Source: a virus. From it: a stretch of DNA of 64,000 nt. The position numbers were made by a program, and so were the translations under genes. The stretch lies in IMG/VR virus record IMGVR_UViG_3300043395_000996, positions 62,001 to 126,000 of that record; one strand, written 5' to 3'. Every line of letters begins with the position of its first letter. The stretch's first letter is position 1. Under the pieces are notes generated by a model. The model was not told where the DNA came from, did no database searches, and worked only from the letters and a program-made list of their open reading frames with translations. Below are positions 1 through 31,303 of this stretch, piece by piece.

Positions 1-2526
1 AGCAGATGCTTTTTCCCATTTCAATGCGTTATAAAAATCATTAACTTTGTTTTCCAACTCTGCTTTATAAATCATATCTCTATCCACATATTGCTCTACG
101 AAATCCATAATTTCTTGTGGGTCATTGTAATCTTTGAATGCGACGGTATCCAATCCTAACGGATTTGTTTTAAGATATACCCACTTCACTTTATCACCAT
201 CTCTAATTGGTTCGTGCTTATATGGACAATTGAAAAACTTTAATAATCTATTATAAGATATACCAGCTTTAACGTGCGCCGGTGTTCCTTTTTCAAAATC
301 AGCAATTGCTTGTCCTCCATCTTTTCTCCACGTTCCATTATCATATTTACTCAACTCCTTAATCGCTCCACCCTTTGCTATTTTATTTACTGGCAAAGTT
401 ACCATTTCTTTTTTGAAGTTAAGTAAAGATTCATCCATAAATGCATTATCTTTACCCATTAGAATATCTTTCAACATTTTAGCCATAAAGTCCTGAAATG
501 CTTTCGGAAACGATGAACGAACCACATCCAATCCTTTTACATCCAACTTATCACAAGGTACACCATTCTTTAAAATCATCCATTGTGCATATCGTTTCTT
601 TGCTACCCAAAATCCCGCTTTACTGATGTACTCTTTCTTAATTTCAAATCTATGTTTTTCCTTTGGAATAAAAAAGAATCTTTCAGCCAACATATCATAG
701 AATGAGTTTAAGAATGTTTGAGTTTCTTCGGCAATTGTGTTTACCTCTTCAGCCATTCTATTTTGGTCGAATGTTTTGTATTCGGGATAACGATGCTTCA
801 CCAATGGTTCTGCCATCATATAAATGGAATCAGTATCGATGTACACATTATAATCTTCTTTAGTTCCGAGTTCTTTCCAATATTTGATGTTTGCCATTTC
901 TGCTGTTTTCTTAATAACAGTTTGGCCCGTAATCGTAACTGCCTCTGCATTATCAATATCGTAAAACCGAAAGGCAGGAAGACCAAGCACACCATACATA
1001 GAGTTAAGAAGAATCTTCTGAACCAACTGCCTTTTCGCATAAAATTCATATTTTTCCGTATCACCCTCCGTACCATATTTCTTTTCTAATTTTCTAAATT
1101 CAACACGTTTTTGAAACCAATCATTTAAAATATCCGCAATAAGACCAGGTGAATCCTGTGAGTATAAAACTCCGTTAGCTGCTACTCCTAAATTACTATC
1201 TTTAATAACTTCTTTTAGTTCCTGTGTTGTATATTCATACTCATCACCATCCTTACCAATAACTTTATAGGTTGTATCCAATCCTTTAATATTAGCTTCC
1301 GCATCCCAATTTTGAATCTTACCAATTTTTGTTTCGGGACTGATGTTTAGAGTCATAATGATTGATGGATATAGAGATGTTAAGTCCAAATCATAAATCC
1401 AATCGTACTTACCAACAATAGGTTCTTTCACATAAGCTCCAATAAACTTCTCTTCGTTGTTATCACGGAGTGCCTGCATCCTTTCTTTTCTATCCTTTGG
1501 TTTATTAGTTGCTACTAATCCTTTCTTTTTCAGATATCCCAAACATGCCCCCTCTAACCATTTAGAGGAGAATATGTAATCTTCGTATGGAACAAATCCG
1601 GCATGGCAAACGGCTCTACATAATTCAATGAATTGTAATTTGTTATCCATTGCTACAACCAACTCCACGTCAACAATGTTATACTCAATAAACTTCTCTA
1701 AATCATTTACAAATAAATCATCTAAACTTCCTTCATACTCAACCTTACCTCTACCTAATTCTTTGGTAGCAATGTAATTCAATGTATAAGATGCTTCCAA
1801 TGTATATGTGTATGTTTTATATAGATTGATGTAATCTAACACACTCACTCCACCAAAACTGAACTTCTCTCTATATGGTGACCAGAATGCCTCACCAATG
1901 CGAGATAATCTTTTAGCATGTCCTTCCCCACATACGTTTTTAATACGATTGTAGAGATATGGAATATCAAAGAAATCGATGTTCCAACCTGTTAAGATTG
2001 TTGGGTCAATTTGCTGATAATAGTTTAAGAATGATAATAAAAGATTTCTTTCATTATCAAAAATGTGAACTTTTACCTCTCTACCATCTTTACTAAATTG
2101 CTTTGCATTATCTTTGACTTTACGTTCTTTATCTAATACAAACACTTCATATTCTTTTGTGATAGAATCGTGTGCAGCAATAGCTGTGATTTCGTTTTGT
2201 GCTTCCTTTGTATTTGGTAGACCAGATATCATTTCTACCTCAATATCAAATGTTAATACAGTATGACCTTTTGATGGTAAATCATTATCGTAAATGTCTA
2301 CCAATACTCTCGTTGTTTCTGGCACATCGGATTCAAATAAATCTTCAGCTTCATCTTTTTCCCACTTTGAAATACGGGTTAATTTATCACCATACATTGA
2401 ACGATGTTGTCCGTATGGGTCTTTTTTATAAGCGTATTTACGATATGGAAATGTTTGATAACCATTTGTATCATCCCATAAATGTATTAAATTCTTTGCT
2501 CTCTCGTAATAGATGTTTTGATACAT
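1..2526 (-). CDS. 43: Family B DNA polymerase, gp43-like (3' end cut by window)
   Basis: Replicative phage DNA polymerase with proofreading exonuclease. The frame is open from the ATG at 2526 to the left window edge, 842 codons, so only a short C-terminal piece is missing compared with T4 gp43 (about 900 residues). Visible motifs are exo I FDIEVE (residues 93-98), exo II TGWNIDFFDIPYL, exo III YNIVDVEL, polymerase motif A DLTSLYPSI (about 1355-1392) and motif C YIDTDSIY (about 818-845), with all catalytic aspartates present. The start overlaps the stop of the upstream glycosyltransferase as TAATG, so translation is probably coupled. No intein or split is seen in the visible part. Family assignment is very secure; the exact C-terminus is not in the window. 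Confidence 0.97.
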   Translation of the reverse strand, partial: MYQNIYYERAKNLIHLWDDTNGYQTFPYRKYAYKKDPYGQHRSMYGDKLTRISKWEKDEAEDLFESDVPETTRVLVDIYDNDLPSKGHTVLTFDIEVEMISGLPNTKEAQNEITAIAAHDSITKEYEVFVLDKERKVKDNAKQFSKDGREVKVHIFDNERNLLLSFLNYYQQIDPTILTGWNIDFFDIPYLYNRIKNVCGEGHAKRLSRIGEAFWSPYREKFSFGGVSVLDYINLYKTYTYTLEASYTLNYIATKELGRGKVEYEGSLDDLFVNDLEKFIEYNIVDVELVVAMDNKLQFIELCRAVCHAGFVPYEDYIFSSKWLEGACLGYLKKKGLVATNKPKDRKERMQALRDNNEEKFIGAYVKEPIVGKYDWIYDLDLTSLYPSIIMTLNISPETKIGKIQNWDAEANIKGLDTTYKVIGKDGDEYEYTTQELKEVIKDSNLGVAANGVLYSQDSPGLIADILNDWFQKRVEFRKLEKKYGTEGDTEKYEFYAKRQLVQKILLNSMYGVLGLPAFRFYDIDNAEAVTITGQTVIKKTAEMANIKYWKELGTKEDYNVYIDTDSIYMMAEPLVKHRYPEYKTFDQNRMAEEVNTIAEETQTFLNSFYDMLAERFFFIPKEKHRFEIKKEYISKAGFWVAKKRYAQWMILKNGVPCDKLDVKGLDVVRSSFPKAFQDFMAKMLKDILMGKDNAFMDESLLNFKKEMVTLPVNKIAKGGAIKELSKYDNGTWRKDGGQAIADFEKGTPAHVKAGISYNRLLKFFNCPYKHEPIRDGDKVKWVYLKTNPLGLDTVAFKDYNDPQEIMDFVEQYVDRDMIYKAELENKVNDFYNALKWEKASA

Positions 2527-3638
2527 TAATATCTTAATTTTTCGTTTAAAACTTTAATCATTTTACTATCATTTAATGATAGTTCCTTTGCTCTTTCAAT
2601 TGCTTTGTTTGATATATCTAAACGATGGGTTTCGTTATCTAATATTCTATCAAGCATATCAAACAAATCCTTTTTATATTTAAAGAATAATCCATTTGGG
2701 TCTATCTCTTTATAACAATCTGATTCCTGAAATATCATCGGTGTTCCATTCATCATACAATCCGTTGCTGCCACACTCCATCCATAATTGGTTTGCCTCA
2801 TCTGAACTCCAACCATACATTCTTGTAATCTTTTGTAATAGTCGTGTTTGGCAACTTTTGTATTATCAATCCAACTAAATTCTGGCTTACCATCCAATTG
2901 TGGCACCCATACTTTAAAATCTTGCCTACGTTCCCTATACTCTTCCATCAATTTAATAAATGATGGATATCCTTTATAAGCGGCTGCTCTATGATTGAAT
3001 ACAATAACTTTTTCCTTTGATTGAGGCGATTCGATTATTTTGGAATTATCTACTCCTAAATTCCATACTACTAATATACTATTTAATTTTTGAATAAACA
3101 AATCATTAAACCACAATTTTGCTTCTTCCAAAACTCTATCTTTTTGTTCTTGTGTATTTAAAAAGCAAGTTTCCATTTGAGATACACCTAAAAGTTCTAT
3201 CGGCATCCATCTCCATTTGTTTTTTCTATCTTCGGCATTACAAGTTTTCATTTCCCACCAATGACAATATCCTATAATTTTGGTATTAAAATCATTTTTA
3301 TATCTACCAACTTGTGGCCAATCCGGCAAATGTGAATATATTACATCATAATCAATAGTTTCCAATAACCTATTCATATCAGGCGGATATGTTCTCATTT
3401 TAATCATATCACCTGAAAATGGTAGTATATGTTGTTTTACATTAATAAGATTCAATTTCTTAACCGCTTGTGGTAAAATGATATTCCAATAAAAATCACC
3501 ATGCGATTCCAATGCTTTTATATGGTTGTAAATAACATCAACAAATGAATCTTTTTCAATATTAGAAGAATTGGTAATATTTGGTATTACCAATACTTTG
3601 CGAGAATTACTATAATCTATACTATCCCAAAAATTCAT
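2526..3638 (-). CDS. GT-B fold glycosyltransferase
   Basis: A 370-residue protein that looks like a GT-B (GT4-type) glycosyltransferase. The C-terminal half has the usual nucleotide-sugar-binding layout: a strand with FNHRAAAYKGY (about 225-235), a helix, a strand FKVWVPQLDG, then a second helix and the stretch GWSVAATDCMMNGTPMIF, equivalent to the acidic/glycine loop of this fold. The N-terminal half holds a Rossmann-like segment (YDVIYSHLPDW). Its stop overlaps the polymerase ATG (TAATG), and one base separates it from the DUF4338 gene upstream, so it belongs to the operon that ends with the DNA polymerase. A role in decorating modified phage DNA is attractive because of that position, but the acceptor cannot be read from sequence; lipopolysaccharide or protein targets are possible. 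Confidence 0.75.
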   Translation of the reverse strand: MNFWDSIDYSNSRKVLVIPNITNSSNIEKDSFVDVIYNHIKALESHGDFYWNIILPQAVKKLNLINVKQHILPFSGDMIKMRTYPPDMNRLLETIDYDVIYSHLPDWPQVGRYKNDFNTKIIGYCHWWEMKTCNAEDRKNKWRWMPIELLGVSQMETCFLNTQEQKDRVLEEAKLWFNDLFIQKLNSILVVWNLGVDNSKIIESPQSKEKVIVFNHRAAAYKGYPSFIKLMEEYRERRQDFKVWVPQLDGKPEFSWIDNTKVAKHDYYKRLQECMVGVQMRQTNYGWSVAATDCMMNGTPMIFQESDCYKEIDPNGLFFKYKKDLFDMLDRILDNETHRLDISNKAIERAKELSLNDSKMIKVLNEKLRY

Positions 3639-3639
3639 A

Positions 3640-4866
3640 TTATCTTCCTACTTCTTTTAAATAATGTTCTTTCATTTGTTCCCAAGTCATTCCAATTGCA
3701 TCTATATAAAATAGAACCTCTGGTTTGATTTTACCTTCATCAAACAATTTTTCATATCGTTTGATTGCTTTATTTTTCCACCATTTAATAGTGTATTCGT
3801 TTCCTTCTTTGAATTTATCTTTCAACACTAAATCCTTCTCTTCAATTTTTGAACAAAGGAATTCATTACCATTTTCATACATTTGTGCAAAATATACACC
3901 TCTTTGGAATCCGTGGTCATATTCATTTCCTTTAATTCCTAATTCTTTGAATATTGCCTGAATAATCTTTTGTTTGATTCCACTTACAGGTCCATTCTTT
4001 TCGTAACCCATATTAGCACCATTTCTTTCTCTCTCATCCATAATGTTTTTCTTATACCATTCTGAACGATTTTCTTTTAACCATTGATGCCACGGGTCAT
4101 AAACTTTATCATCGGGTTTTGTTGAAATCTTACCTTTGGATTCACCCAATGTTTTGAAATGTGGAATACCATTATATTGTGAATGGATACCATACAAAGA
4201 TGTTGTTCCCACTCCAACCAATGGATTGTTGTATTTCTTTTGCCAATAATCTCTAACTTCGGGTGAAGTTGCTAATGCTGCGATTAACTTACCACCTAAA
4301 AAATTATATCCAAATGGTTGTGTTGATACAATGGTAGTTGCAATTGTAGTGCAATTTAATTTACCCTTTTCAAACTTATCTTCTTTACTCCAACCAATAT
4401 ACTCATCTCTAACACCCAATGAAGTAATATCAGAACCCAAACAAATTTGCCCTAATATTTTTCCGCTTGTTCTATCCTTTACATAACATTTTACATTACG
4501 ACCTGGATTAGCCTGAAACTCCATTGTGTGAATCAATCTACGAATTTCAGTCCATCGAGTTGATTCTTTTGGGTCATCTTCTACAATTTCTACATAGGGA
4601 TTGATTGATTCGATTTCCTTAATAGTTAGCTCTTTATTTGTAATATCAGTCGGCTTCCATAACGAATCATAGTGTTGTTGAAGAACCGGCAATCGTTTCA
4701 TATTAGAAACCAAATCATCGTTCCACTCCATCCATTTTTTGTAGAGAGTTTGCTCTTCTACTGACATAGTTTTAAGATAGTCCATATTTTCAATGAACTT
4801 CTTTTTCATAACCTCATAATCAAATGTGGCCGTGTTTGTTTCTTCTCCGGTATCCCAAAATTTCAT
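3640..4866 (-). CDS. DUF4338 (DruA-like) protein
   Basis: A 408-residue protein whose middle part matches the DUF4338 family, best known from DruA of the Druantia anti-phage system. The hallmark strand-turn GKILGQICLGSD is followed by RDEYIGWS (residues 153-160), then a conserved helical stretch ending DYWQKKYNNPLVGVGTTS. Residues 1-100 are a helical N-terminal part, and the C-terminal 150 residues are specific to this protein. The biochemical activity of DUF4338 is not known to me. The order of strands (xxIG/LGxxxxG, then a domain resembling the ...NWxYxG end of Mom) is like the two Mom-type proteins immediately upstream, so all three may be related acyltransferase-like modification enzymes; that is inference. 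It has its own promoter at 4892-4922, which sits against the end of the first Mom gene. Confidence 0.75.
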   Translation of the reverse strand: MKFWDTGEETNTATFDYEVMKKKFIENMDYLKTMSVEEQTLYKKWMEWNDDLVSNMKRLPVLQQHYDSLWKPTDITNKELTIKEIESINPYVEIVEDDPKESTRWTEIRRLIHTMEFQANPGRNVKCYVKDRTSGKILGQICLGSDITSLGVRDEYIGWSKEDKFEKGKLNCTTIATTIVSTQPFGYNFLGGKLIAALATSPEVRDYWQKKYNNPLVGVGTTSLYGIHSQYNGIPHFKTLGESKGKISTKPDDKVYDPWHQWLKENRSEWYKKNIMDERERNGANMGYEKNGPVSGIKQKIIQAIFKELGIKGNEYDHGFQRGVYFAQMYENGNEFLCSKIEEKDLVLKDKFKEGNEYTIKWWKNKAIKRYEKLFDEGKIKPEVLFYIDAIGMTWEQMKEHYLKEVGR

Positions 4867-4891
4867 ATTCAGATTTTATTATTGTGTTTTA

Positions 4892-4922
4892 CAAATATAC
4901 GAAAAATAATTGATATTACCAA
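4892..4922 (-). promoter_or_regulatory. Bacteroidota-type promoter for the DUF4338 operon
   Basis: Sense strand reads TTG (4922-4920), 20 bases, then TATATTTG (4899-4892), an exact match to the Bacteroidota TTG/TAnnTTTG consensus. It lies 25 bases before the ATG at 4866. Its -33 part abuts the stop codon of the upstream Mom-like gene. Confidence 0.75.
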
Positions 4923-5719
4923 AATTTGGTATCTATTTCCGTTTCTGGTGCAATTGTTTCCCAATGCTGAATATCCTTATTATATGCACGAGCATCTTTA
5001 GGATAAGGTCTAATCTCATGTTTCAATGATTTAAGAATTGTTTTTCTTTCTTTCTTATCTTCAGCTATAATTTGTAAGTATCTATGCTTTGGTGGTTCTT
5101 CTCTTCTCCAAAATTCTTTGTAACCTTGCTTACCAATTTCTCTACGAAGATGCTCCAAATTACCACTACCCCATTTTGTAAACACAGTCCTACTATGAAT
5201 CCATTTGTATGGGTTATTTGATAATGAAATGCCATAGTTTGGCATTAGGGCGATATCGGTATTTAGCCCCTGATAAATCCAATTAGTTGCTTGGTAAATA
5301 CCACCCAAATGTTCTTGCCCATTATCGGCGTAAGAAATAAGTGCTTTAATTGCTTTATCATTTTCTCTGAACCATTTGAATGATTGTCCCATAGCAAAAG
5401 ATTCAATGTTAGAACCATAACCATCATCACAATAAAGACGTGTTAATTCCAATACATTATCTTTTGTAAGTAATTCCGAAATAGAAGTTGCTGCTCTAGC
5501 TCCAACGGGAAACCCGTAAACCAAACATCCAATCAATTTGGTATCTTCGCCCAACGCATTGGTTTCATCCATTTTATAGAATATTCCTAATGCGTATCTA
5601 CACGCAGTCCAAGCGTGAGTATAGTGTTTCTTTACGATAATATCTTTTGCTACATCTTTACCAATTGGTGCTATAAATACTTTTGATGTATCACAATATT
5701 GTTTGCCTTCTACTTTCAT
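4916..5719 (-). CDS. Mom-like DNA adenine modification protein (copy A)
   Basis: A 267-residue member of the family of phage Mu Mom, a GNAT-fold enzyme that converts adenine in DNA to a carbamoylmethyl derivative and so protects phage DNA from restriction. Visible family features are the N-terminal IIVKKHYTH block (His32-Tyr33), the strand KLIGCLVYGFPVG (61-73), VLELTRLYCDDGYGSNIES (89-107), and ALISYADNGQEHLGGIYQA (126-144) followed by TNWIYQG. The C-terminal PPKHRYL segment is also typical. It is four bases downstream of a paralogue (copy B). Mu Mom needs the host to supply the acyl donor; nothing here tells what group is added. The family call is strong, the exact base and modification are inference. 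Confidence 0.85.
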   Translation of the reverse strand: MKVEGKQYCDTSKVFIAPIGKDVAKDIIVKKHYTHAWTACRYALGIFYKMDETNALGEDTKLIGCLVYGFPVGARAATSISELLTKDNVLELTRLYCDDGYGSNIESFAMGQSFKWFRENDKAIKALISYADNGQEHLGGIYQATNWIYQGLNTDIALMPNYGISLSNNPYKWIHSRTVFTKWGSGNLEHLRREIGKQGYKEFWRREEPPKHRYLQIIAEDKKERKTILKSLKHEIRPYPKDARAYNKDIQHWETIAPETEIDTKFW

Positions 5720-5723
5720 AACC

Positions 5724-6479
5724 TTAATTTATTGGTTCTAATTTATGTATTTCTTCAATGAATTCCTCATTTGCTTTTGGATATGGCAAAGATGGATATT
5801 TTAGATTTTTTAATAATTGTTTTCTTTCTTTTCCATTAACCAAAATGTAAACGTAACGATGTTTTCTCGGTTCTTTTTTAATCCAAAATGGCGATGTAAC
5901 CATTGTCTGAATTATCTTCGGGTCATTCGTTCCGTATTTCACATATGAAGTTCTGCTATGATGCCACTCATCAATCTCACTCCACTTAAAACTCCAACTA
6001 TCATTTGGTCGGATTCGGTTACCCTGATAAATCCAATTGGTTGCTTGATATATAGTTCCTAAATGACCAGCCTTTGGGTCTGAATATGATACCAATGCTT
6101 TTATATGTGGTGCGTTTTCTCTTAACCATTGAAATGTTTTTCCAACAAACCAACTTTCAATATTACTACCATATCCATCAAACACAAATAAACGGGTTAG
6201 TTCTAACACTTCCGTTCTATCCAATGTTTCACATATAGATGCGCCGGAATGCCTACCAACCGGGTCACCATAACACGCTACACCAATAAGTTTTTCATTT
6301 ACTCCTCCAAAGAATTTGTGTTCATCGTTTGAAACATAAAATAAACCAATAGCATAGGATACTTTTGTCCATATACCACTATAATGGTTATTTACAATAA
6401 TATCCTTTGCTACGTTTTTATTTACCGACCTTACAACTAATTTTGATGTATCACAATATAACTTATTGAGTTCTTTCAT
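5724..6479 (-). CDS. Mom-like DNA modification protein (copy B)
   Basis: A 251-residue paralogue of the next gene downstream. Shared blocks are YCDTSK near the N-terminus, VAKDIIVNNHY (23-33), KLIGVACYGDPVG (63-75), VLELTRLFVFDGYGSNIES (91-109), ALVSYSDPKAGHLGTIYQA (128-146) and TNWIYQG, ending with the PRKHRYVYI block. The two copies differ over most other positions, so this is an old duplication and not a recent repeat. Tandem Mom paralogues suggest two specificities (site or base) or a heteromeric enzyme. The start overlaps the end of the small HTH gene by 17 bases, so expression probably comes from the promoter at 6668-6698. Confidence 0.85.
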   Translation of the reverse strand: MKELNKLYCDTSKLVVRSVNKNVAKDIIVNNHYSGIWTKVSYAIGLFYVSNDEHKFFGGVNEKLIGVACYGDPVGRHSGASICETLDRTEVLELTRLFVFDGYGSNIESWFVGKTFQWLRENAPHIKALVSYSDPKAGHLGTIYQATNWIYQGNRIRPNDSWSFKWSEIDEWHHSRTSYVKYGTNDPKIIQTMVTSPFWIKKEPRKHRYVYILVNGKERKQLLKNLKYPSLPYPKANEEFIEEIHKLEPIN

Positions 6480-6663
6480 AAGGCCACTTTATCATGTGTG
6501 TCCACGTTTGGTTTGTAACTATTTTTTTAATGTTAGCAGGAGATACCTTATAGTTTCTAGCAATAACATTGATATTTCTATGCCCTATACGATATAGTTC
6601 TCTAATTTCGGAAACCTGTTTTTCCGTTAATTTGTGCATTGGATGCGCTTCTCCTTTTAACAT
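6463..6663 (-). CDS. Small helix-turn-helix protein
   Basis: A 66-residue basic protein. Residues 10-50 (KLTEKQVSEIRELY ... IARNYKVSPANIKKIV ... TW) form a helix-turn-helix of the type that accompanies HNH homing endonucleases and small phage DNA-binding proteins, here standing alone with no nuclease. The frame is open further upstream through a GTG at 6696, but the promoter at 6668-6698 overlaps that extension, so the ATG at 6663 is preferred. It overlaps the start of Mom copy B, which suggests coupled expression; it could regulate or target the Mom proteins, but nothing proves it. Confidence 0.65.
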   Translation of the reverse strand: MLKGEAHPMHKLTEKQVSEIRELYRIGHRNINVIARNYKVSPANIKKIVTNQTWTHMIKWPYERTQ

Positions 6664-6703: not shown

Positions 6704-6967
6704 TTACTTTAAATTTTCATTTATTGCGTTTACATATGCCAATTTAGATTGTAAACCGGTGAATCTTTCCACTTCTATACCATCTTTTTCCATAACTACT
6801 GTTGGAACTGAACGTATTCCGTATTTAGTGGCTTCTTCATAAGCTTCATCTACATCGTATTCTTCAAATCTTACATTTGAAAATTGGCCTTTAATTTCGT
6901 TCATCATTGGTGCCAATGCTCTACACGGTCCACACCATGCTGCGCTAAATTTTTTAACTGTTATCAT
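6704..6967 (-). CDS. Thioredoxin
   Basis: An 87-residue thioredoxin: strand MITVKKFSA, active-site WCGPC (Trp11 to Cys15), the VRFEEYDVDE strand, and the cis-proline loop SVPTVV. It is shorter than bacterial thioredoxins (about 105 residues), as is usual for phage versions. The likely job is reducing the C-terminal CxxC pair of the phage ribonucleotide reductase encoded a few kilobases upstream. It sits between the HTH gene and a glycosyltransferase-like gene in one co-directional run. Confidence 0.93.
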   Translation of the reverse strand: MITVKKFSAAWCGPCRALAPMMNEIKGQFSNVRFEEYDVDEAYEEATKYGIRSVPTVVMEKDGIEVERFTGLQSKLAYVNAINENLK

Positions 6968-6977
6968 AATTTTATTT

Positions 6978-8066
6978 TTAGTTGTTTTCTATTTTTGGGT
7001 ATTCTTGTGGATGATACAATGATTCCCATAATGGTATATTTGATATTCTTTGAATTGATTGAAAATAAATATCAAACATTATATCAAATTCTTTTGGAAA
7101 AATATCTTTAAAATTTGATTCATAATGTTTTGCTAAATTTAACAAAAGTTGTCTATTATGTCTATAAATATCTCTACACTTATCCCAAAGTTCATATAAT
7201 TCATCATTTGATTTAGCATTTAATTTTAATATCTCCTGATAAATCATTTTTTCTCTAACATTATCATCCGCATCATCATATGATTCATCTATTATATCGT
7301 TAAATGTTTTAAATCCCAAATTGTGTAAATTTCTTAAAACATGCTTTTGTCCTATAATAATAAATGGTCTAGATGATGCAAGAACTCTAAATGTTTTTTC
7401 AGAAATAAAAACAGAATCAATTGATAATACGTTTGATTCATATTGAGTTTCCGTTACAATATTACAAAACGCATCTCTATAAAATGGAACTAAATGTGAA
7501 TGATGGTGACAAAATGATGAATTTAAATCATCTTCTAAAAATGTATTTGAATTGTTATTATATCTAAATGAATAATATGAATTTTCTTTTATATTATTTT
7601 CTTCAAATAATTTTTCCAAATTACATCTATGCTCTTTTTTTGTTTTATTAAAGCTTATAAATTTTTTATTAAAATTTTTAGGTAATTCAAATTCTTCTAC
7701 AAAAAATTCATCAGGCGTAGCCCAATAAAAATTAAATGGATAATAATAAAATGTAAATTGTAAATATCCTAATAAATTTTCATACTCTTTAGTTTTATTT
7801 TCATAAAAAATGATAATCTTTTTAGTATTAATCTTTTTTTCTAAAAAAAATTCATGCAATTGAAATAATTGTAAAATGTGACCTGGAGTAATATATTCTC
7901 CTTTTTCCGAATATATTATTTTATAATCTCTATAATTTTCATAATAAAAATTAAGAAATTCATTTAAAACATACATTTCAGTTTGCATGAATAATGGTCT
8001 TTCAAAAAATATCGTTTTTGATTCAGGAGATATTATAATATATTTTTTAAAATCAATCCTTTCCAT
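6978..8066 (-). CDS. Putative glycosyltransferase-like protein
   Basis: A 362-residue protein of a type often seen in T4-like phages of marine and Bacteroidota hosts. The recognisable part is residues about 200-270: FCNIVTETQYES, then FISEKTFRVLASSRPFIIIG and GFKTFNDIIDESYDD. This VTE...EKTF...PFIIxG...GFxTF order resembles the donor-binding half of some GT-B and exostosin-like glycosyltransferases. The N-terminal half is rich in Tyr, Phe, Asn and Lys with no motif I recognise. A longer start at 8096 is possible but overlaps PhoH by 44 bases; the internal ATG at 8066 gives a 14-base overlap and is preferred. Enzyme class is tentative. Confidence 0.5.
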   Translation of the reverse strand: MERIDFKKYIIISPESKTIFFERPLFMQTEMYVLNEFLNFYYENYRDYKIIYSEKGEYITPGHILQLFQLHEFFLEKKINTKKIIIFYENKTKEYENLLGYLQFTFYYYPFNFYWATPDEFFVEEFELPKNFNKKFISFNKTKKEHRCNLEKLFEENNIKENSYYSFRYNNNSNTFLEDDLNSSFCHHHSHLVPFYRDAFCNIVTETQYESNVLSIDSVFISEKTFRVLASSRPFIIIGQKHVLRNLHNLGFKTFNDIIDESYDDADDNVREKMIYQEILKLNAKSNDELYELWDKCRDIYRHNRQLLLNLAKHYESNFKDIFPKEFDIMFDIYFQSIQRISNIPLWESLYHPQEYPKIENN

Positions 8067-8778
8067 TAGTCTTTTCTTTGAAATCGGTGTATGCATCTAA
8101 TAAGGCATCTACGACCGGATGTCTATGATTGGTTAATAAAGTTTGTGAATCCATATCTTTAATCTTCTTTGCAGCTGATAATAAGAATTTAAATCCACTA
8201 TCTCCTTTATATTTTAAATCTACTTGCTGTGTATCACCACAAACTACCATCTTACTTCTTAATCCCAAACGAGATGTAATCATTTCCATTTGGTCATTAG
8301 TGCAGTTTTGTGCCTCATCTACAATAATAAATGAATCCAAAAATGTTCTACCTCTCATAAATGCCAAAGGTACAATTTCAACTTGTCCACTTTCTAAAAT
8401 CTTATCAATCTTTTCTTTGTTGTACAATTGATAAAAGTTAGAATAGATGGGTTGCATCCACGGTTCCATTTTCTCTCTCAAATCGCCTGGTAAAAATCCG
8501 ATTTCCTCTTTACTTACAGTAGGACGAGTAATGATGATTTTAGTAACCGATTTCTTAAATAACATATCTAATGCAACCTGGCAAGCTAAAAGTGTTTTAC
8601 CACTTCCGGCTTTACCACTTAATATTGTAATCGCATTATTTAAAATTTTCTCTTTTGCTTCTTTTTGCTCTTCATTCAGTTGTAACTGAAATTTAATAGG
8701 TCCTTTTGGTTTATCAATTTTTTCCTCTCTAATTTTCTCCGTTAATTCTTTGTTCTTTAACGATTGATTCTCTCCCAT
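8053..8778 (-). CDS. phoH: PhoH-like ATPase
   Basis: A 241-residue P-loop protein with Walker A GKAGSGKT (residues 55-62) and Walker B FIIVDEAQN, followed by TSRLG and a GDTQQVDL sensor-like motif, the signature of the PhoH family. PhoH proteins are common in phages; the C-terminal domain is a superfamily 1 helicase-like ATPase and RNA unwinding has been proposed, but the role in phage infection is unsettled. It lies upstream of the glycosyltransferase-like gene with a small overlap and downstream of two small basic proteins. Confidence 0.92.
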   Translation of the reverse strand: MGENQSLKNKELTEKIREEKIDKPKGPIKFQLQLNEEQKEAKEKILNNAITILSGKAGSGKTLLACQVALDMLFKKSVTKIIITRPTVSKEEIGFLPGDLREKMEPWMQPIYSNFYQLYNKEKIDKILESGQVEIVPLAFMRGRTFLDSFIIVDEAQNCTNDQMEMITSRLGLRSKMVVCGDTQQVDLKYKGDSGFKFLLSAAKKIKDMDSQTLLTNHRHPVVDALLDAYTDFKEKTNGKD

Positions 8779-28483: not shown

Positions 28484-31303
28484 TTATTGGAATCTGGAAA
28501 CTCCGTAATTTCTACGAGCTTGATTCAGTAAAGAAGTTTGTAGGACTTTACCATTTATATTGATATCGGATTCGGTTGCCGTATTTGTACTAATTTGTTG
28601 TAAAAATTGAGCATTTACTCCTAACATAGCAACAATCTCTTGTTGTAATTTAGTATTATATTGAGCTTCTGTTAATGCTATTTTTGCTTTTTCAACTGCC
28701 GCTTGCTGTGCAGCTGCCTGTTTTTGTCCATTTGCATTAATAGCATCTACTGTTGGTTTAGTTCCTTTTTCAACAGGTTTAGCTGCTGCTGCCGCTGATG
28801 CAGGAGTTGCTCCTCCAAATGCACCCATATCTCTAGCAGCAATTCCAGCATCGATTGCCATTGATGATGCAGTTCCAACCCCCGGTGCAACTAAATCCAA
28901 TAAACCTGCTCCAGCTGATAAAGTTTCTAATCCGGCTCCAGCCCAATCACCACTCATCGCTCTATCTATTGCAAATCCCATACCAAGAACAGAACCCAAT
29001 ATAGGAATTCTTTTTGCTAAACTCTTACCAAATGTTTTAGTAGCTACTTTAGCTACACTTTTTTCTGCAATCTTTGCAGTTGTTTTTTCAACAGCTTTGG
29101 CAGTTGTTTTTTCTGCAACTTTAGTAGTTGTTTTTGTAGCAGTTTTTGCTGCGGCTTTTTCAGTTGTTTTTGCTACGGCTTTTTCAGTTGTCTTTGTTGC
29201 TACTTTTTCAGTTACTTTTGGAGCTACTTTTTCTCCACTTTTAAATACATTTTTTAATAAACTACCACCTTTATTCATTAAGAATGTGGTAACAACTGCG
29301 GCAATGGTTGATATTAATGCGGTTGTCAACATTGTTTCTGCATTTTTTAAGAAACTTTGTTGGTCTCTTTCATTCATTTTATCAGCCAATTTACCTACAT
29401 TGTTGATAATGGCATCTTGTCTTTGCATTTCTGCTGCCGCATTTAATCCTATACGTTTTAATTCAGTAGCTGCTTGAATTTGTGCATTTGCTGCTGCTAA
29501 TCCTGCTTCAGCCGATTGTTTAGCTGCTAAGTATGTCTTATTACCACTTTCAACACTTTTTCCAGTCAATTCACCTCCAGTAGTTCCATTTCTTTGAGTT
29601 ATTTTTTGAATATCATTTAAATCCATTCCACCCAACGCAGATGATAATTGTTGCTGTTGGAACATATTCATTTTAGCAGGGTCTAAACCTTGTGCTTGTA
29701 ATGCTTTCATTGCTCCTTCGCTATCACCACTCATAAATTTGGTTCTAACTTCGGAAAGATTTACACTTTTACCAAGCATCGCTGATAAACTCATTTCGGC
29801 TTTGATACTATCTTTATAGTTCAAAACCATATTTTGCCCAGCTTTAGCTACTGCATTAAAACTTACACCCAATGATTTAGCGTAAATTACTTGCTTTGCT
29901 AATTGGCTAGTACTTTTTATTTGATAACTTATTGCATCTTTAGATGCTTCGGCAATTTCAGTCATTGCTCCTGCTAAATTTACACCTGCTTTAGAAGCCA
30001 TACTTCTAACACCTTCTTGTAAATTTAATGCAGTTGATTCGGATACCTTATCTAATCTTTGAAAAACATCATTTATAGATGCAATACTTTCAGTAGATTG
30101 CCCTGTTCTATCAGCAATTATTGCCATATCAGCCGCAACCTTACCACTTGGCATTTTACCAGTTGCATCAGCGGCATCTTGCATCGCTTGTGCTATCTTA
30201 TCTGCGCTAATTCCTGCCAATTGCAATTGAGCCGCACCATATCCAACACTACCTAATTTATTACCAAATAATGCCGTTTTAGATGCCGCCTCAAACGAAG
30301 CTCCCATTTGTTGTACAGAAGCACTGAAATCAAGCATTGCTTCTTCCATAACAAAATTACGACCTCCAAACATACCCATATCAACTTGTTTGTTGATAGT
30401 ATCTATTTCACCCGTTAATTTTGCTATTTTTTTATCATATCCAGCAATAGTTCCTAACTTATTTCCTATCAATCCATAGTTGTAAGCCATTCCAGCTAAT
30501 ACACCGGCTAGTGCACCCAATGCTAATGACAATCCCTTACCACCATTAGTTGCGGTTTTCATTACATCTCCCAATTCTCTCATACCCTCAACACCGCTAC
30601 CAGCTATCCCATCAATTGAACGTTGAAGTCCTCCAAATGCTTCAGCTGAAGCTTTTCCAAAAGATTTAACTTCGGCATCCATATTTTTCAATTGTTGCCC
30701 AAATGCTTCTTCTGCTTCGGTTGATAATTCTATTTCTGAACGTATTTCGGCGTAAGTATCTCTTGCTTTTTTAATTTCAGCATGATACTCTTCAGTTGTA
30801 ATGTTTCCTCTTACTCTTAATCGATTTGCTTCAATAATTGAAGCTTGATTTTGTTTATAAGCTTTTTGTATTCTTTGAATAGATTTGTAATCCGAATCAT
30901 TTATTTTTCCATTTTTCGTAATTACTTTCGAAATACTATCTAATACAATTTTTGTTTTTTCTAATCTTTCAGATTGAAGTTTATAAGCTTTTGTATTTTT
31001 ACCAATTGTATTGCCAATACTAATTAAATTAGTATCCATTTCTTGGTAATCGCTTAATTCGGCTTTATTCGATTTTTCTCTTTCTTTTTGAACTTTTAAA
31101 AGAGTATCATAATTTTTTTTACTCTTTGCTAACGCTTTGTTTTCAGCTTCCAATGCCTCAATTCTATCAAATTGAGCTTGAGTTATTTTTTCTTCTAATT
31201 TATAAAGTTTTTCGGCTTCTTTTTGATTACGCACATATGCTTGAGCTTCAGATTCTAAAGCAATTATTCTAGCGTTTATATTATCTGCACTTGATTTAGC
31301 CAT
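28484..31303 (-). CDS. Tail tape measure protein
   Basis: A 939-residue protein, the longest in the central tail region and of typical tape-measure build: a long N-terminal coiled coil (about 1-210, Lys/Glu/Ala-rich), a glycine/alanine-rich hydrophobic region (LALGALAGVLAGMAYNYGL near 260 and LISTIAAVVTTFLMNKG near 670), a low-complexity Lys/Thr/Ala tract near residues 690-755, and a further hydrophobic stretch. It would set tail length and be ejected with DNA. It is preceded by candidate tail-assembly chaperone genes, as expected. Confidence 0.88.
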   Translation of the reverse strand: MAKSSADNINARIIALESEAQAYVRNQKEAEKLYKLEEKITQAQFDRIEALEAENKALAKSKKNYDTLLKVQKEREKSNKAELSDYQEMDTNLISIGNTIGKNTKAYKLQSERLEKTKIVLDSISKVITKNGKINDSDYKSIQRIQKAYKQNQASIIEANRLRVRGNITTEEYHAEIKKARDTYAEIRSEIELSTEAEEAFGQQLKNMDAEVKSFGKASAEAFGGLQRSIDGIAGSGVEGMRELGDVMKTATNGGKGLSLALGALAGVLAGMAYNYGLIGNKLGTIAGYDKKIAKLTGEIDTINKQVDMGMFGGRNFVMEEAMLDFSASVQQMGASFEAASKTALFGNKLGSVGYGAAQLQLAGISADKIAQAMQDAADATGKMPSGKVAADMAIIADRTGQSTESIASINDVFQRLDKVSESTALNLQEGVRSMASKAGVNLAGAMTEIAEASKDAISYQIKSTSQLAKQVIYAKSLGVSFNAVAKAGQNMVLNYKDSIKAEMSLSAMLGKSVNLSEVRTKFMSGDSEGAMKALQAQGLDPAKMNMFQQQQLSSALGGMDLNDIQKITQRNGTTGGELTGKSVESGNKTYLAAKQSAEAGLAAANAQIQAATELKRIGLNAAAEMQRQDAIINNVGKLADKMNERDQQSFLKNAETMLTTALISTIAAVVTTFLMNKGGSLLKNVFKSGEKVAPKVTEKVATKTTEKAVAKTTEKAAAKTATKTTTKVAEKTTAKAVEKTTAKIAEKSVAKVATKTFGKSLAKRIPILGSVLGMGFAIDRAMSGDWAGAGLETLSAGAGLLDLVAPGVGTASSMAIDAGIAARDMGAFGGATPASAAAAAKPVEKGTKPTVDAINANGQKQAAAQQAAVEKAKIALTEAQYNTKLQQEIVAMLGVNAQFLQQISTNTATESDININGKVLQTSLLNQARRNYGVSRFQ
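29040..29235 (-). repeat. Lys-Thr-Ala low-complexity repeat in tape measure
   Basis: Degenerate tandem repeats encoding units such as KTTEKAVAKTTEKAAAK. The units are imperfect at the DNA level. This segment is prone to slippage and may vary between isolates. Confidence 0.7.

What the first reader, a model, noticed from the sequence alone, without database searches (positions are those of the whole stretch)
3640..6663. Two Mom-like enzymes, a DUF4338 protein and a small HTH protein in one cluster: candidate DNA hypermodification system
Seen: two diverged Mom-family paralogues in tandem, a DUF4338 (DruA-like) gene directly downstream and a 66-residue HTH gene overlapping the second Mom. The DUF4338 protein and the Mom proteins have the same kind of strand (K-I/L-xG-xxxx-G) before the conserved core. 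Known: Mom modifies adenine in DNA against restriction; DruA belongs to an anti-phage system of unknown chemistry. Inference: the phage modifies its DNA with two specificities, and DUF4338 is another enzyme of the same or a parallel pathway, perhaps followed by the glycosyltransferase coupled to the polymerase.
Basis: partly seen in the sequence, partly recalled or inferred. Interest (0 to 1): 0.75.

Follow-up and report, generated by a model that had tools for sequence, protein, structure and literature searches.

The report
Phage cassette of DNA-modifying enzymes
A T4-like environmental phage carries, next to its DNA polymerase gene, a swappable set of enzymes that probably attach small chemical groups to its DNA to evade bacterial defence, and relatives of one of them show that a bacterial defence protein of unknown chemistry (DruA) descends from the same enzyme family.

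Summary
In detail: HTH (66 aa), two Mom proteins and a DUF4338/DruA protein sit in tandem upstream of a glycosyltransferase-like gene and gp43. Both Moms score far above Pfam's cut-off, keep the serine whose loss inactivates Mu Mom (S124), and are separate clades under purifying selection; the MomA model matches the Mu Mom crystal structure. DUF4338 is modelled as a GNAT. It does not match Mom directly in sequence or fold search, but short phage DruA proteins bridge the two: they match Mom profiles (hhalign 96.7%, E 4e-10) with every active-site-like residue in register, and match the window's DUF4338 (99.4%). In other phages short DruA takes the Mom slot behind the same HTH, or lies in tandem with Moms. 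In a polymerase-seeded survey, HTH, Mom and DUF4338 are present together or absent together (14 against 8, none mixed). Phages lacking them carry a DNA-methylase/amidotransferase module at the same place. Best reading: a replication-linked DNA-modification cassette. The window's DUF4338 lacks the Mom-type residues, so its chemistry is open. Glycosylation is unsupported. No chemistry has been measured.

The parts
6463..6663 (-). small HTH gene (66 aa); first gene of the cassette, overlaps the next gene by 17 nt
   Evidence: Of 79 distinct homologues with a readable next gene, 78 precede a GNAT gene: Mom 63, a small (52-66 aa) ORF then Mom 12, short DruA 2, DUF4338 1
5724..6479 (-). MomA, Mom-family DNA-modification GNAT (251 aa)
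   Evidence: PF25680 151.6 bits; AlphaFold2 pLDDT 93.5; Foldseek best hit 8bv8 Mu Mom E 1.6e-12; S109 aligns with Mu S124
4916..5719 (-). MomB, second Mom-family GNAT (267 aa)
   Evidence: PF25680 144.6 bits; catalytic residues kept, S107 = Mu S124; separate clade from MomA; dN/dS about 0.11-0.15
3640..4866 (-). DUF4338/DruA-family protein, long type (408 aa), predicted GNAT
   Evidence: PF14236 77.7 bits; PADLOC DruA1 E 1.2e-21; AlphaFold2 pLDDT 91.1; top PDB matches are almost all GNAT-fold acyltransferases; dN/dS 0.07-0.13
2526..3638 (-). glycosyltransferase-like protein (370 aa), neighbour; role in DNA modification not supported
   Evidence: PF13524 21.2 bits, under cut-off 25; no PDB relative by sequence
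1..2526 (-). DNA polymerase gp43 (part; runs off the window), overlaps the previous gene by 1 nt; downstream boundary of the cassette
   Evidence: record coordinates 61965-64526; Pfam DNA_pol_B on its homologue L277:6818-9331
6704..6967 (-). thioredoxin gene; upstream boundary of the cassette, shared with phages that carry the alternative module
   Evidence: PF00085 67 bits; synteny

Best explanation
HTH-MomA-MomB-DUF4338 is an exchangeable phage DNA-modification cassette placed in the replication operon. MomA and MomB transfer a small acyl- or carbamoyl-type group to bases (by analogy with Mu Mom, adenine) in newly made phage DNA, probably with different targets, so that host restriction enzymes do not cut it. 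The small HTH protein either regulates the operon or guides the enzyme translated from the overlapping reading frame. DUF4338 is a third GNAT of the same deep family; it most likely modifies DNA (or a modified base) with an acyl donor, using a different active site. Shown by computation: gene identities, folds, homology of DruA and Mom, co-inheritance, slot exchange. Inferred: that DNA is the substrate, the group transferred, and the anti-restriction purpose.
For: Both Moms are unambiguous members with the Mu S124 residue kept. Short DruA proteins match Mom profiles at hhalign Prob 96.7, E 3.9e-10, with column-shuffled, reversed and unrelated-family controls scoring about 22 or less against 66; their only PDB hit is Mom (E 0.35) and 9 of 30 also hit Pfam Mom, best E 3.5e-6. 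They match the window's DUF4338 type at Prob 99.4. H, Y, R, N, S/T, G, Y, A, N, W, G and K pair in register between Mom and short DruA. Short DruA occupies the Mom slot behind the same HTH, with near-identical nucleotides up to the ATG. Tandem arrays: HTH-DruA-Mom-Mom-DUF4338 (L445, L446), DruA-DruA-Mom-Mom-Mom (L474), Mom-DruA (L467, L302). Polymerase-seeded survey: 14 with HTH+Mom+DUF4338, 8 with none, 0 mixed. The 8 'none' loci carry two DNA-methylase-like proteins plus an AsnB-type amidotransferase at the same place; 0 of 18 cassette loci do. DUF4338 lies between gp44 and gp62 in 9 of 10 cyanophages and between the sliding clamp and gp44 in several lineages.
Against: The window's long DUF4338 lacks the Mom-type residues (I112 for His, T178 for Arg, G192 for Ser/Thr), does not match Mom directly, and Mom is not among its 50 best fold matches, all of which have E above 1e-3. 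11 of 12 cultured cyanophages and Pelagibacter phages with DUF4338 have no Mom, so DUF4338 does not need Mom. Survey loci are related: the gp43 tree needs only 2-3 changes of state. No chemistry was measured.
Confidence: 0.7

Rival explanations
1. MomA and MomB modify DNA, but DUF4338 acetylates a protein (a replisome component, host RNA polymerase or another host target) and is linked to replication genes for that reason.
For: Kaur et al. 2024 (PMC10853773) read a DUF4338 GNAT domain fused to DndF as an effector aimed at proteins. Structural neighbours of the window's DUF4338 include protein acetyltransferases such as p300/CBP and PCAF. DUF4338 occurs without Mom in cyanophages. The Mom-type residues are absent.
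Against: Homology to Mom through short DruA. Exchange of short DruA and Mom in one slot. All-or-none inheritance with Mom in this lineage. The structural neighbours also include TmcA, an RNA cytidine acetyltransferase.
Confidence: 0.22
2. The cassette is one half of a phage-versus-phage restriction-modification module: the GNATs protect phage DNA while the variable 460-680 aa gene that often lies next to them in relatives cuts unmodified or competing DNA.
For: In relatives a variable large gene lies next to the Moms or DUF4338; L141 carries a GmrSD_N-like domain (E 2e-7, just under cut-off) and matches PADLOC NsnA and REase_II, L018 matches NsnA, L107 a homing endonuclease. Jumbo-phage Mom domains are reported fused to nuclease domains (PMC7824862).
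Against: The window has no such gene: MomB, DUF4338, the glycosyltransferase-like gene and gp43 are contiguous. Several of the variable genes match nothing.
Confidence: 0.12
3. The genes are unrelated neighbours that gathered in a gene-rich replication region; no shared function.
For: DUF4338 and Mom also occur apart.
Against: All-or-none presence, tandem arrays in several lineages, exchange behind a fixed HTH, strong purifying selection.
Confidence: 0.05
4. One reading: the cassette feeds a glycosylated hypermodified base made with the adjacent glycosyltransferase.
For: The glycosyltransferase-like gene is adjacent to DUF4338 and overlaps gp43 by 1 nt, and related genes precede gp43 in several lineages.
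Against: Weak family match, no PDB relative by sequence, ordinary thymidylate synthase motifs. The gene is replaced by only about 30% identical versions in close relatives.
Confidence: 0.06

Closest known systems
Mom of phage Mu (PF25680; PDB 8BV8)
   Same: Fold (Foldseek E 1.6e-12 for MomA), residues including S124, profile scores far above cut-off
   Different: Two or more paralogues side by side, placed in a T4-like replication operon, led by an HTH gene instead of the zinc-finger gene com; no conserved RNA stem at the HTH-GNAT junction
DruA of Druantia type I (PF14236, formerly DUF4338)
   Same: Family of the DUF4338 protein (77.7 bits Pfam; PADLOC DruA1 E 1.2e-21)
   Different: No other Druantia gene was seen in the neighbourhood; partners are Mom, HTH and the replisome; it is a phage gene
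DruA-like proteins of Synechococcus phages (Phold paper, PMC12774648)
   Same: Same family; that paper reports TM-score 0.73 to DruA
   Different: There the gene sits between gp44 and gp62, usually with no Mom in the genome; the paper draws no link to Mom (the word Mom does not occur in its main text)
DUF4338 GNAT domain fused to DndF (PMC10853773)
   Same: Same Pfam family, already called GNAT
   Different: There proposed to target proteins; no mention of Mom
Mom fused to nuclease domains in jumbo phages (PMC7824862)
   Same: Mom-type GNATs in large phages
   Different: Here free-standing tandem Moms with DruA-family GNATs

Membership tests
Mom family (PF25680) | Profile score over the curated cut-off | tested here: met
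   151.6 and 144.6 bits against 27.1
Mom family (PF25680) | GNAT fold as in Mu Mom 8BV8 | tested here: met
   MomA model: best PDB match 8bv8, E 1.6e-12, then other GNATs. MomB was not modelled, but the joint profile hits 8bv8 at E 2.7e-28
Mom family (PF25680) | Residue equivalent to Mu S124, needed for activity (8BV8 is titled 'inactive mutant S124A') | tested here: met
   Invariant Ser: P0003 S109, P0002 S107; 78 of 78 sequences
Mom family (PF25680) | Transfers a methylcarbamoyl group to adenine in DNA | not testable with these tools
   Needs nucleoside mass spectrometry
DruA / DUF4338 family (PF14236) | Profile score over the curated cut-off | tested here: met
   77.7 bits against 27
Druantia defence system | Companion Druantia genes (such as the DruE helicase) in the same operon | tested here: not met
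   Neighbours are Mom, HTH, thioredoxin, glycosyltransferase-like gene and gp43; DruE was not sought elsewhere in the record
GNAT superfamily (for DUF4338) | GNAT fold | tested here: met
   Confident model (pLDDT 91.1). Top PDB matches are almost all GNAT-fold acyltransferases, probability up to 0.99, but E 0.004 or more; published as GNAT
GNAT superfamily (for DUF4338) | Acyl-CoA loop Q/R-x-x-G-x-G/A after strand 4 | tested here: inconclusive
   Q183-P-x-G186-x-N188...G191-G192-K193 is nearly invariant and rightly placed after strand 173-181, but the last position is Asn
Mom-type active site (for the window's DUF4338) | His, Arg, Asn, Ser/Thr and Tyr set shared by Mom and short DruA | tested here: not met
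   I112, T178, F189 and G192 stand at these positions; the Tyr position aligns with H236

The most novel reading that the evidence does not exclude
DruA/DUF4338 proteins are Mom-type DNA-base-modifying enzymes. Phages use them as interchangeable parts of replication-linked modification cassettes, and the same chemistry underlies the marking or sensing step of Druantia type I defence, whose DruA has no known activity.
Probability: 0.4. Interest if true: 0.85.

Novelty: new variant of a known kind. Interest (0 to 1): 0.7.

Why it matters
DruA is part of a widespread anti-phage system and its activity is unknown to my knowledge. Placing it in one family with Mom, with the putative active site conserved in the short phage form, gives a concrete and cheap test: look for a modified nucleoside. 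In the held literature only two general reviews mention Druantia and Mom together, no paper holds DruA, Druantia and GNAT together, and the one paper that calls DUF4338 a GNAT assigns it protein targets. Cultured phages with DUF4338 exist (Pelagibacter phages HTVC008M and Mosig, Synechococcus phages S-SM2, S-PRM1 and S-SSM7), so virion DNA can be obtained. The finding also shows a locus between thioredoxin and DNA polymerase that holds either this cassette or a methylase/amidotransferase module, which may be a second unexplored modification.

Tried and rejected
Direct profile comparison of Mom with the window-type DUF4338: no significant match; only the bridge through short DruA gives it. A capsid (gp23)-matched baseline for co-occurrence gave 0 of 12 with Mom or DUF4338, but four of the five such records tested have no gp43 match, so they are fragments that miss the replication region. 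I rejected that control, and the Fisher value, and replaced it by the polymerase-seeded survey. The count of 17 of 22 DUF4338-bearing records with Mom is conditioned on DUF4338. A Com-like RNA switch at the HTH-Mom junction: no conserved stem. Hydroxymethyl-pyrimidine route for glycosylation: thymidylate synthase has the ordinary LPFN motif; no N6_N4_Mtase gene in this record. DUF4338 fold matched specifically to Mom: not in the top 50. HTH as a family member: only weak matches. Cluster counts of short DruA next to Mom: 7 of 51, 3 of 19 and 4 of 10 clusters at three thresholds, so adjacency is recurrent but not the rule.
Full report
Setting. The window is bases 62001-126000 of a 179,990-base IMG/VR virus record. 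Its genes are those of a T4-like myovirus: gp23-type capsid, DNA polymerase gp43, sliding clamp, clamp loader gp44/gp62, ribonucleotide reductase and PhoH. On the minus strand the order is helicase gp41 - nrdB - nrdA - PhoH - unknown 372 aa - thioredoxin - HTH - MomA - MomB - DUF4338 - glycosyltransferase-like - gp43.

Check of the observation. Mom: PF25680 at 151.6 and 144.6 bits, cut-off 27.1. DUF4338: PF14236 (now 'DruA') at 77.7 bits, cut-off 27; PADLOC DruA1 E 1.2e-21. A profile of the Moms finds one clear solved structure, Mu Mom 8BV8, E 2.7e-28. That entry is titled 'inactive mutant S124A'; the mutated position aligns with a Ser that is invariant in 78 Moms (S109 of MomA, S107 of MomB). 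The AlphaFold2 model of MomA (pLDDT 93.5) has 8BV8 as best match, E 1.6e-12, followed by other GNATs. MomA and MomB fall in separate, well-supported clades, each with counterparts in many phages, and MomA, MomB and DUF4338 are under purifying selection (dN/dS about 0.05-0.15 where dS is not saturated). They are not chance ORFs or decaying duplicates.

What DUF4338 is. The model (pLDDT 91.1) has a GNAT-like order of strands and helices. Its PDB matches are almost all GNAT-fold acyltransferases, among them p300/CBP, PCAF, the RNA cytidine acetyltransferase TmcA and malonyl-CoA decarboxylase, but all with E above 1e-3, and Mom is not in the top 50. Kaur et al. 2024 already call DUF4338 a GNAT (PMC10853773), and a depositor annotated a cyanophage DUF4338 as 'methylcarbamoylase mom'. 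Sequence profiles of Mom and of this long DUF4338 do not match each other.

The bridge. In L107 the gene between HTH and MomB is neither MomA nor an unknown: it is a short DruA (251 aa, PF14236 E 6.9e-23). A set of 30 such short DruA proteins matches the Mom profile at hhalign probability 96.7, E 3.9e-10. Sixty column-shuffled Mom profiles, a reversed one and six unrelated families score at most about 22 against 66 for the real pair. The only PDB sequence the short DruA profile retrieves at E up to 10 is Mom (E 0.35). All 30 members hit Pfam DruA, and 9 also hit Pfam Mom, best E 3.5e-6. The same profile matches the window-type DUF4338 at 99.4, E 3.7e-21. The conserved residues pair in register: H41-H32, Y43-Y33, G68-G66, R105-R96, N116-N106, T119-S109 (Mu S124), G161-G141, Y164-Y144, A166-A146, N168-N148, W169-W149, G173-G153, K225-K206 (short DruA - MomA). 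The motif GxxYxAxN[WF]xxxG is in 356 of 379 Moms, 74 of 88 short DruAs and 0 of 4,166 other ORFs over 100 aa, but in 0 of 291 long DUF4338 proteins. So DruA and Mom are one family at depth; short DruA looks like a Mom-type enzyme, while the long type in the window has kept the fold and lost that residue set. It has its own nearly invariant loop, QPxGxNxLGGKL, right after the fourth core strand, which resembles the acyl-CoA loop of GNATs. That is a resemblance, not a test.

Association. In 79 distinct HTH homologues with a readable next gene, that gene is Mom in 63, a small (52-66 aa) ORF followed by Mom in 12, short DruA in 2, DUF4338 in 1 (L067, whose 100-kb record has no Mom) and the polymerase in 1 (loci had been chosen for Mom or DUF4338). 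Nucleotides up to the start codon are nearly the same whether MomA, MomB or short DruA follows. Other phages have HTH-DruA-MomA-MomB-DUF4338 (L445, L446), DruA-DruA-Mom-Mom-Mom (L474), Mom-DruA (L467, L302) and DruA-Mom (L450). A third Mom lies between gp43 and the sliding clamp, close before DUF4338, in L071, L074 and L277. To avoid bias I seeded a survey with gp43: among 22 loci with at least 8 kb of upstream sequence, 14 have HTH, Mom and DUF4338, 8 have none, 0 are mixed. With at least 3.5 kb the counts are 30 both, 9 neither, 2 DUF4338 only, 0 Mom only. The Fisher values (3e-6, 1.6e-7) overstate the case because the phages are related; the gp43 tree needs only 2-3 changes of state.

Same site, other module. 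The 8 loci without the cassette all carry, at the same place, two DNA-methylase-like proteins (PF01555; the 523-aa one over its cut-off, the 409-aa one under it) on either side of the sliding clamp and an AsnB-type glutamine amidotransferase; 6 add an ordinary GNAT and 2 a PLP-enzyme-like protein. None of these occurs in 18 cassette-bearing loci. The site therefore looks like an exchangeable DNA-modification locus. In cyanophages DUF4338 sits between gp44 and gp62 in 9 of 10 genomes read, in Pelagibacter phages next to gp46/gp47, and in other lineages between clamp and gp44. This recurrent place among replication genes favours DNA, or the replisome, as target. But 11 of 12 of those cultured phages have no Mom, so DUF4338 can act without it.

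Mechanism proposed. Shown by computation: identities, folds, homology, co-inheritance, exchange. Inferred: MomA and MomB modify bases (adenine, by analogy with Mu) in fresh phage DNA; the HTH protein regulates or guides; DUF4338 adds an acyl-type modification by a related but altered active site. Less likely: DUF4338 acetylates a protein. The glycosyltransferase step is not supported.

Limits. No isolate of this lineage, no chemistry, few fold searches, MomB and short DruA not modelled, DUF4338 fold matches weak by E-value. Literature search covered only the held open-access library; Iyer et al. 2013 was not held, so prior notice of the Mom-DruA link cannot be excluded.

Noticed in passing
L567:822-9988, L586:4450-9992 and six more loci: Sister phages without the cassette carry two DNA-methylase-like proteins, an AsnB-type amidotransferase and, in places, a GNAT, a 2-hydroxyacid dehydrogenase or a PLP-enzyme-like protein at the same site: possibly a second, different DNA-modification module.
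   Followed up: partly
L213: A locus with DUF4338 together with the methylase-like module and no Mom found: the two modules are not strictly exclusive outside the polymerase-seeded set.
   Followed up: no
L141:8971-10443, L018:5365-6873, L137:8920-10779, L071:965-2758, L050:9337-11376: Variable 490-680 aa genes beside the Moms or DUF4338, unlike each other; one has a GmrSD_N-like domain, two match PADLOC NsnA. Perhaps nucleases aimed at other phages.
   Followed up: partly
L011:4771-4929, L014:6246-6404, L039:6246-6404 and others: A conserved 52-aa ORF of unknown function (66 aa with an upstream start in L018) between HTH and MomA in 12 distinct loci.
   Followed up: no
L003, L426-L429, L431-L434: In cyanophages DUF4338 is embedded between clamp-loader genes gp44 and gp62 upstream of regA.
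   Followed up: yes
BFVD hits A0A3G4ZXG3, A0A5K0UAJ3, A0A3G4ZRA1: Giant-virus proteins (Faunusvirus, Yasminevirus, Dasosvirus) share the DUF4338 fold with 15-25% identity.
   Followed up: no
window 6978-8096: A 372-aa protein without any clear family match, only 41-48% identical in some relatives whose neighbouring genes are 80-95% identical: fast-evolving or exchanged gene.
   Followed up: no
L218:5947-8203: Two DUF4338 genes in tandem.
   Followed up: no
NZ_CP020371.1 261858-262259: A short-DruA-like sequence lies in a gene annotated as ISAs1 family transposase, so the domain is also linked to transposons.
   Followed up: no
record 29618-30730 (L165:9618-10730): Thymidylate synthase of 370 aa with internal extensions but ordinary catalytic motifs.
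   Followed up: partly
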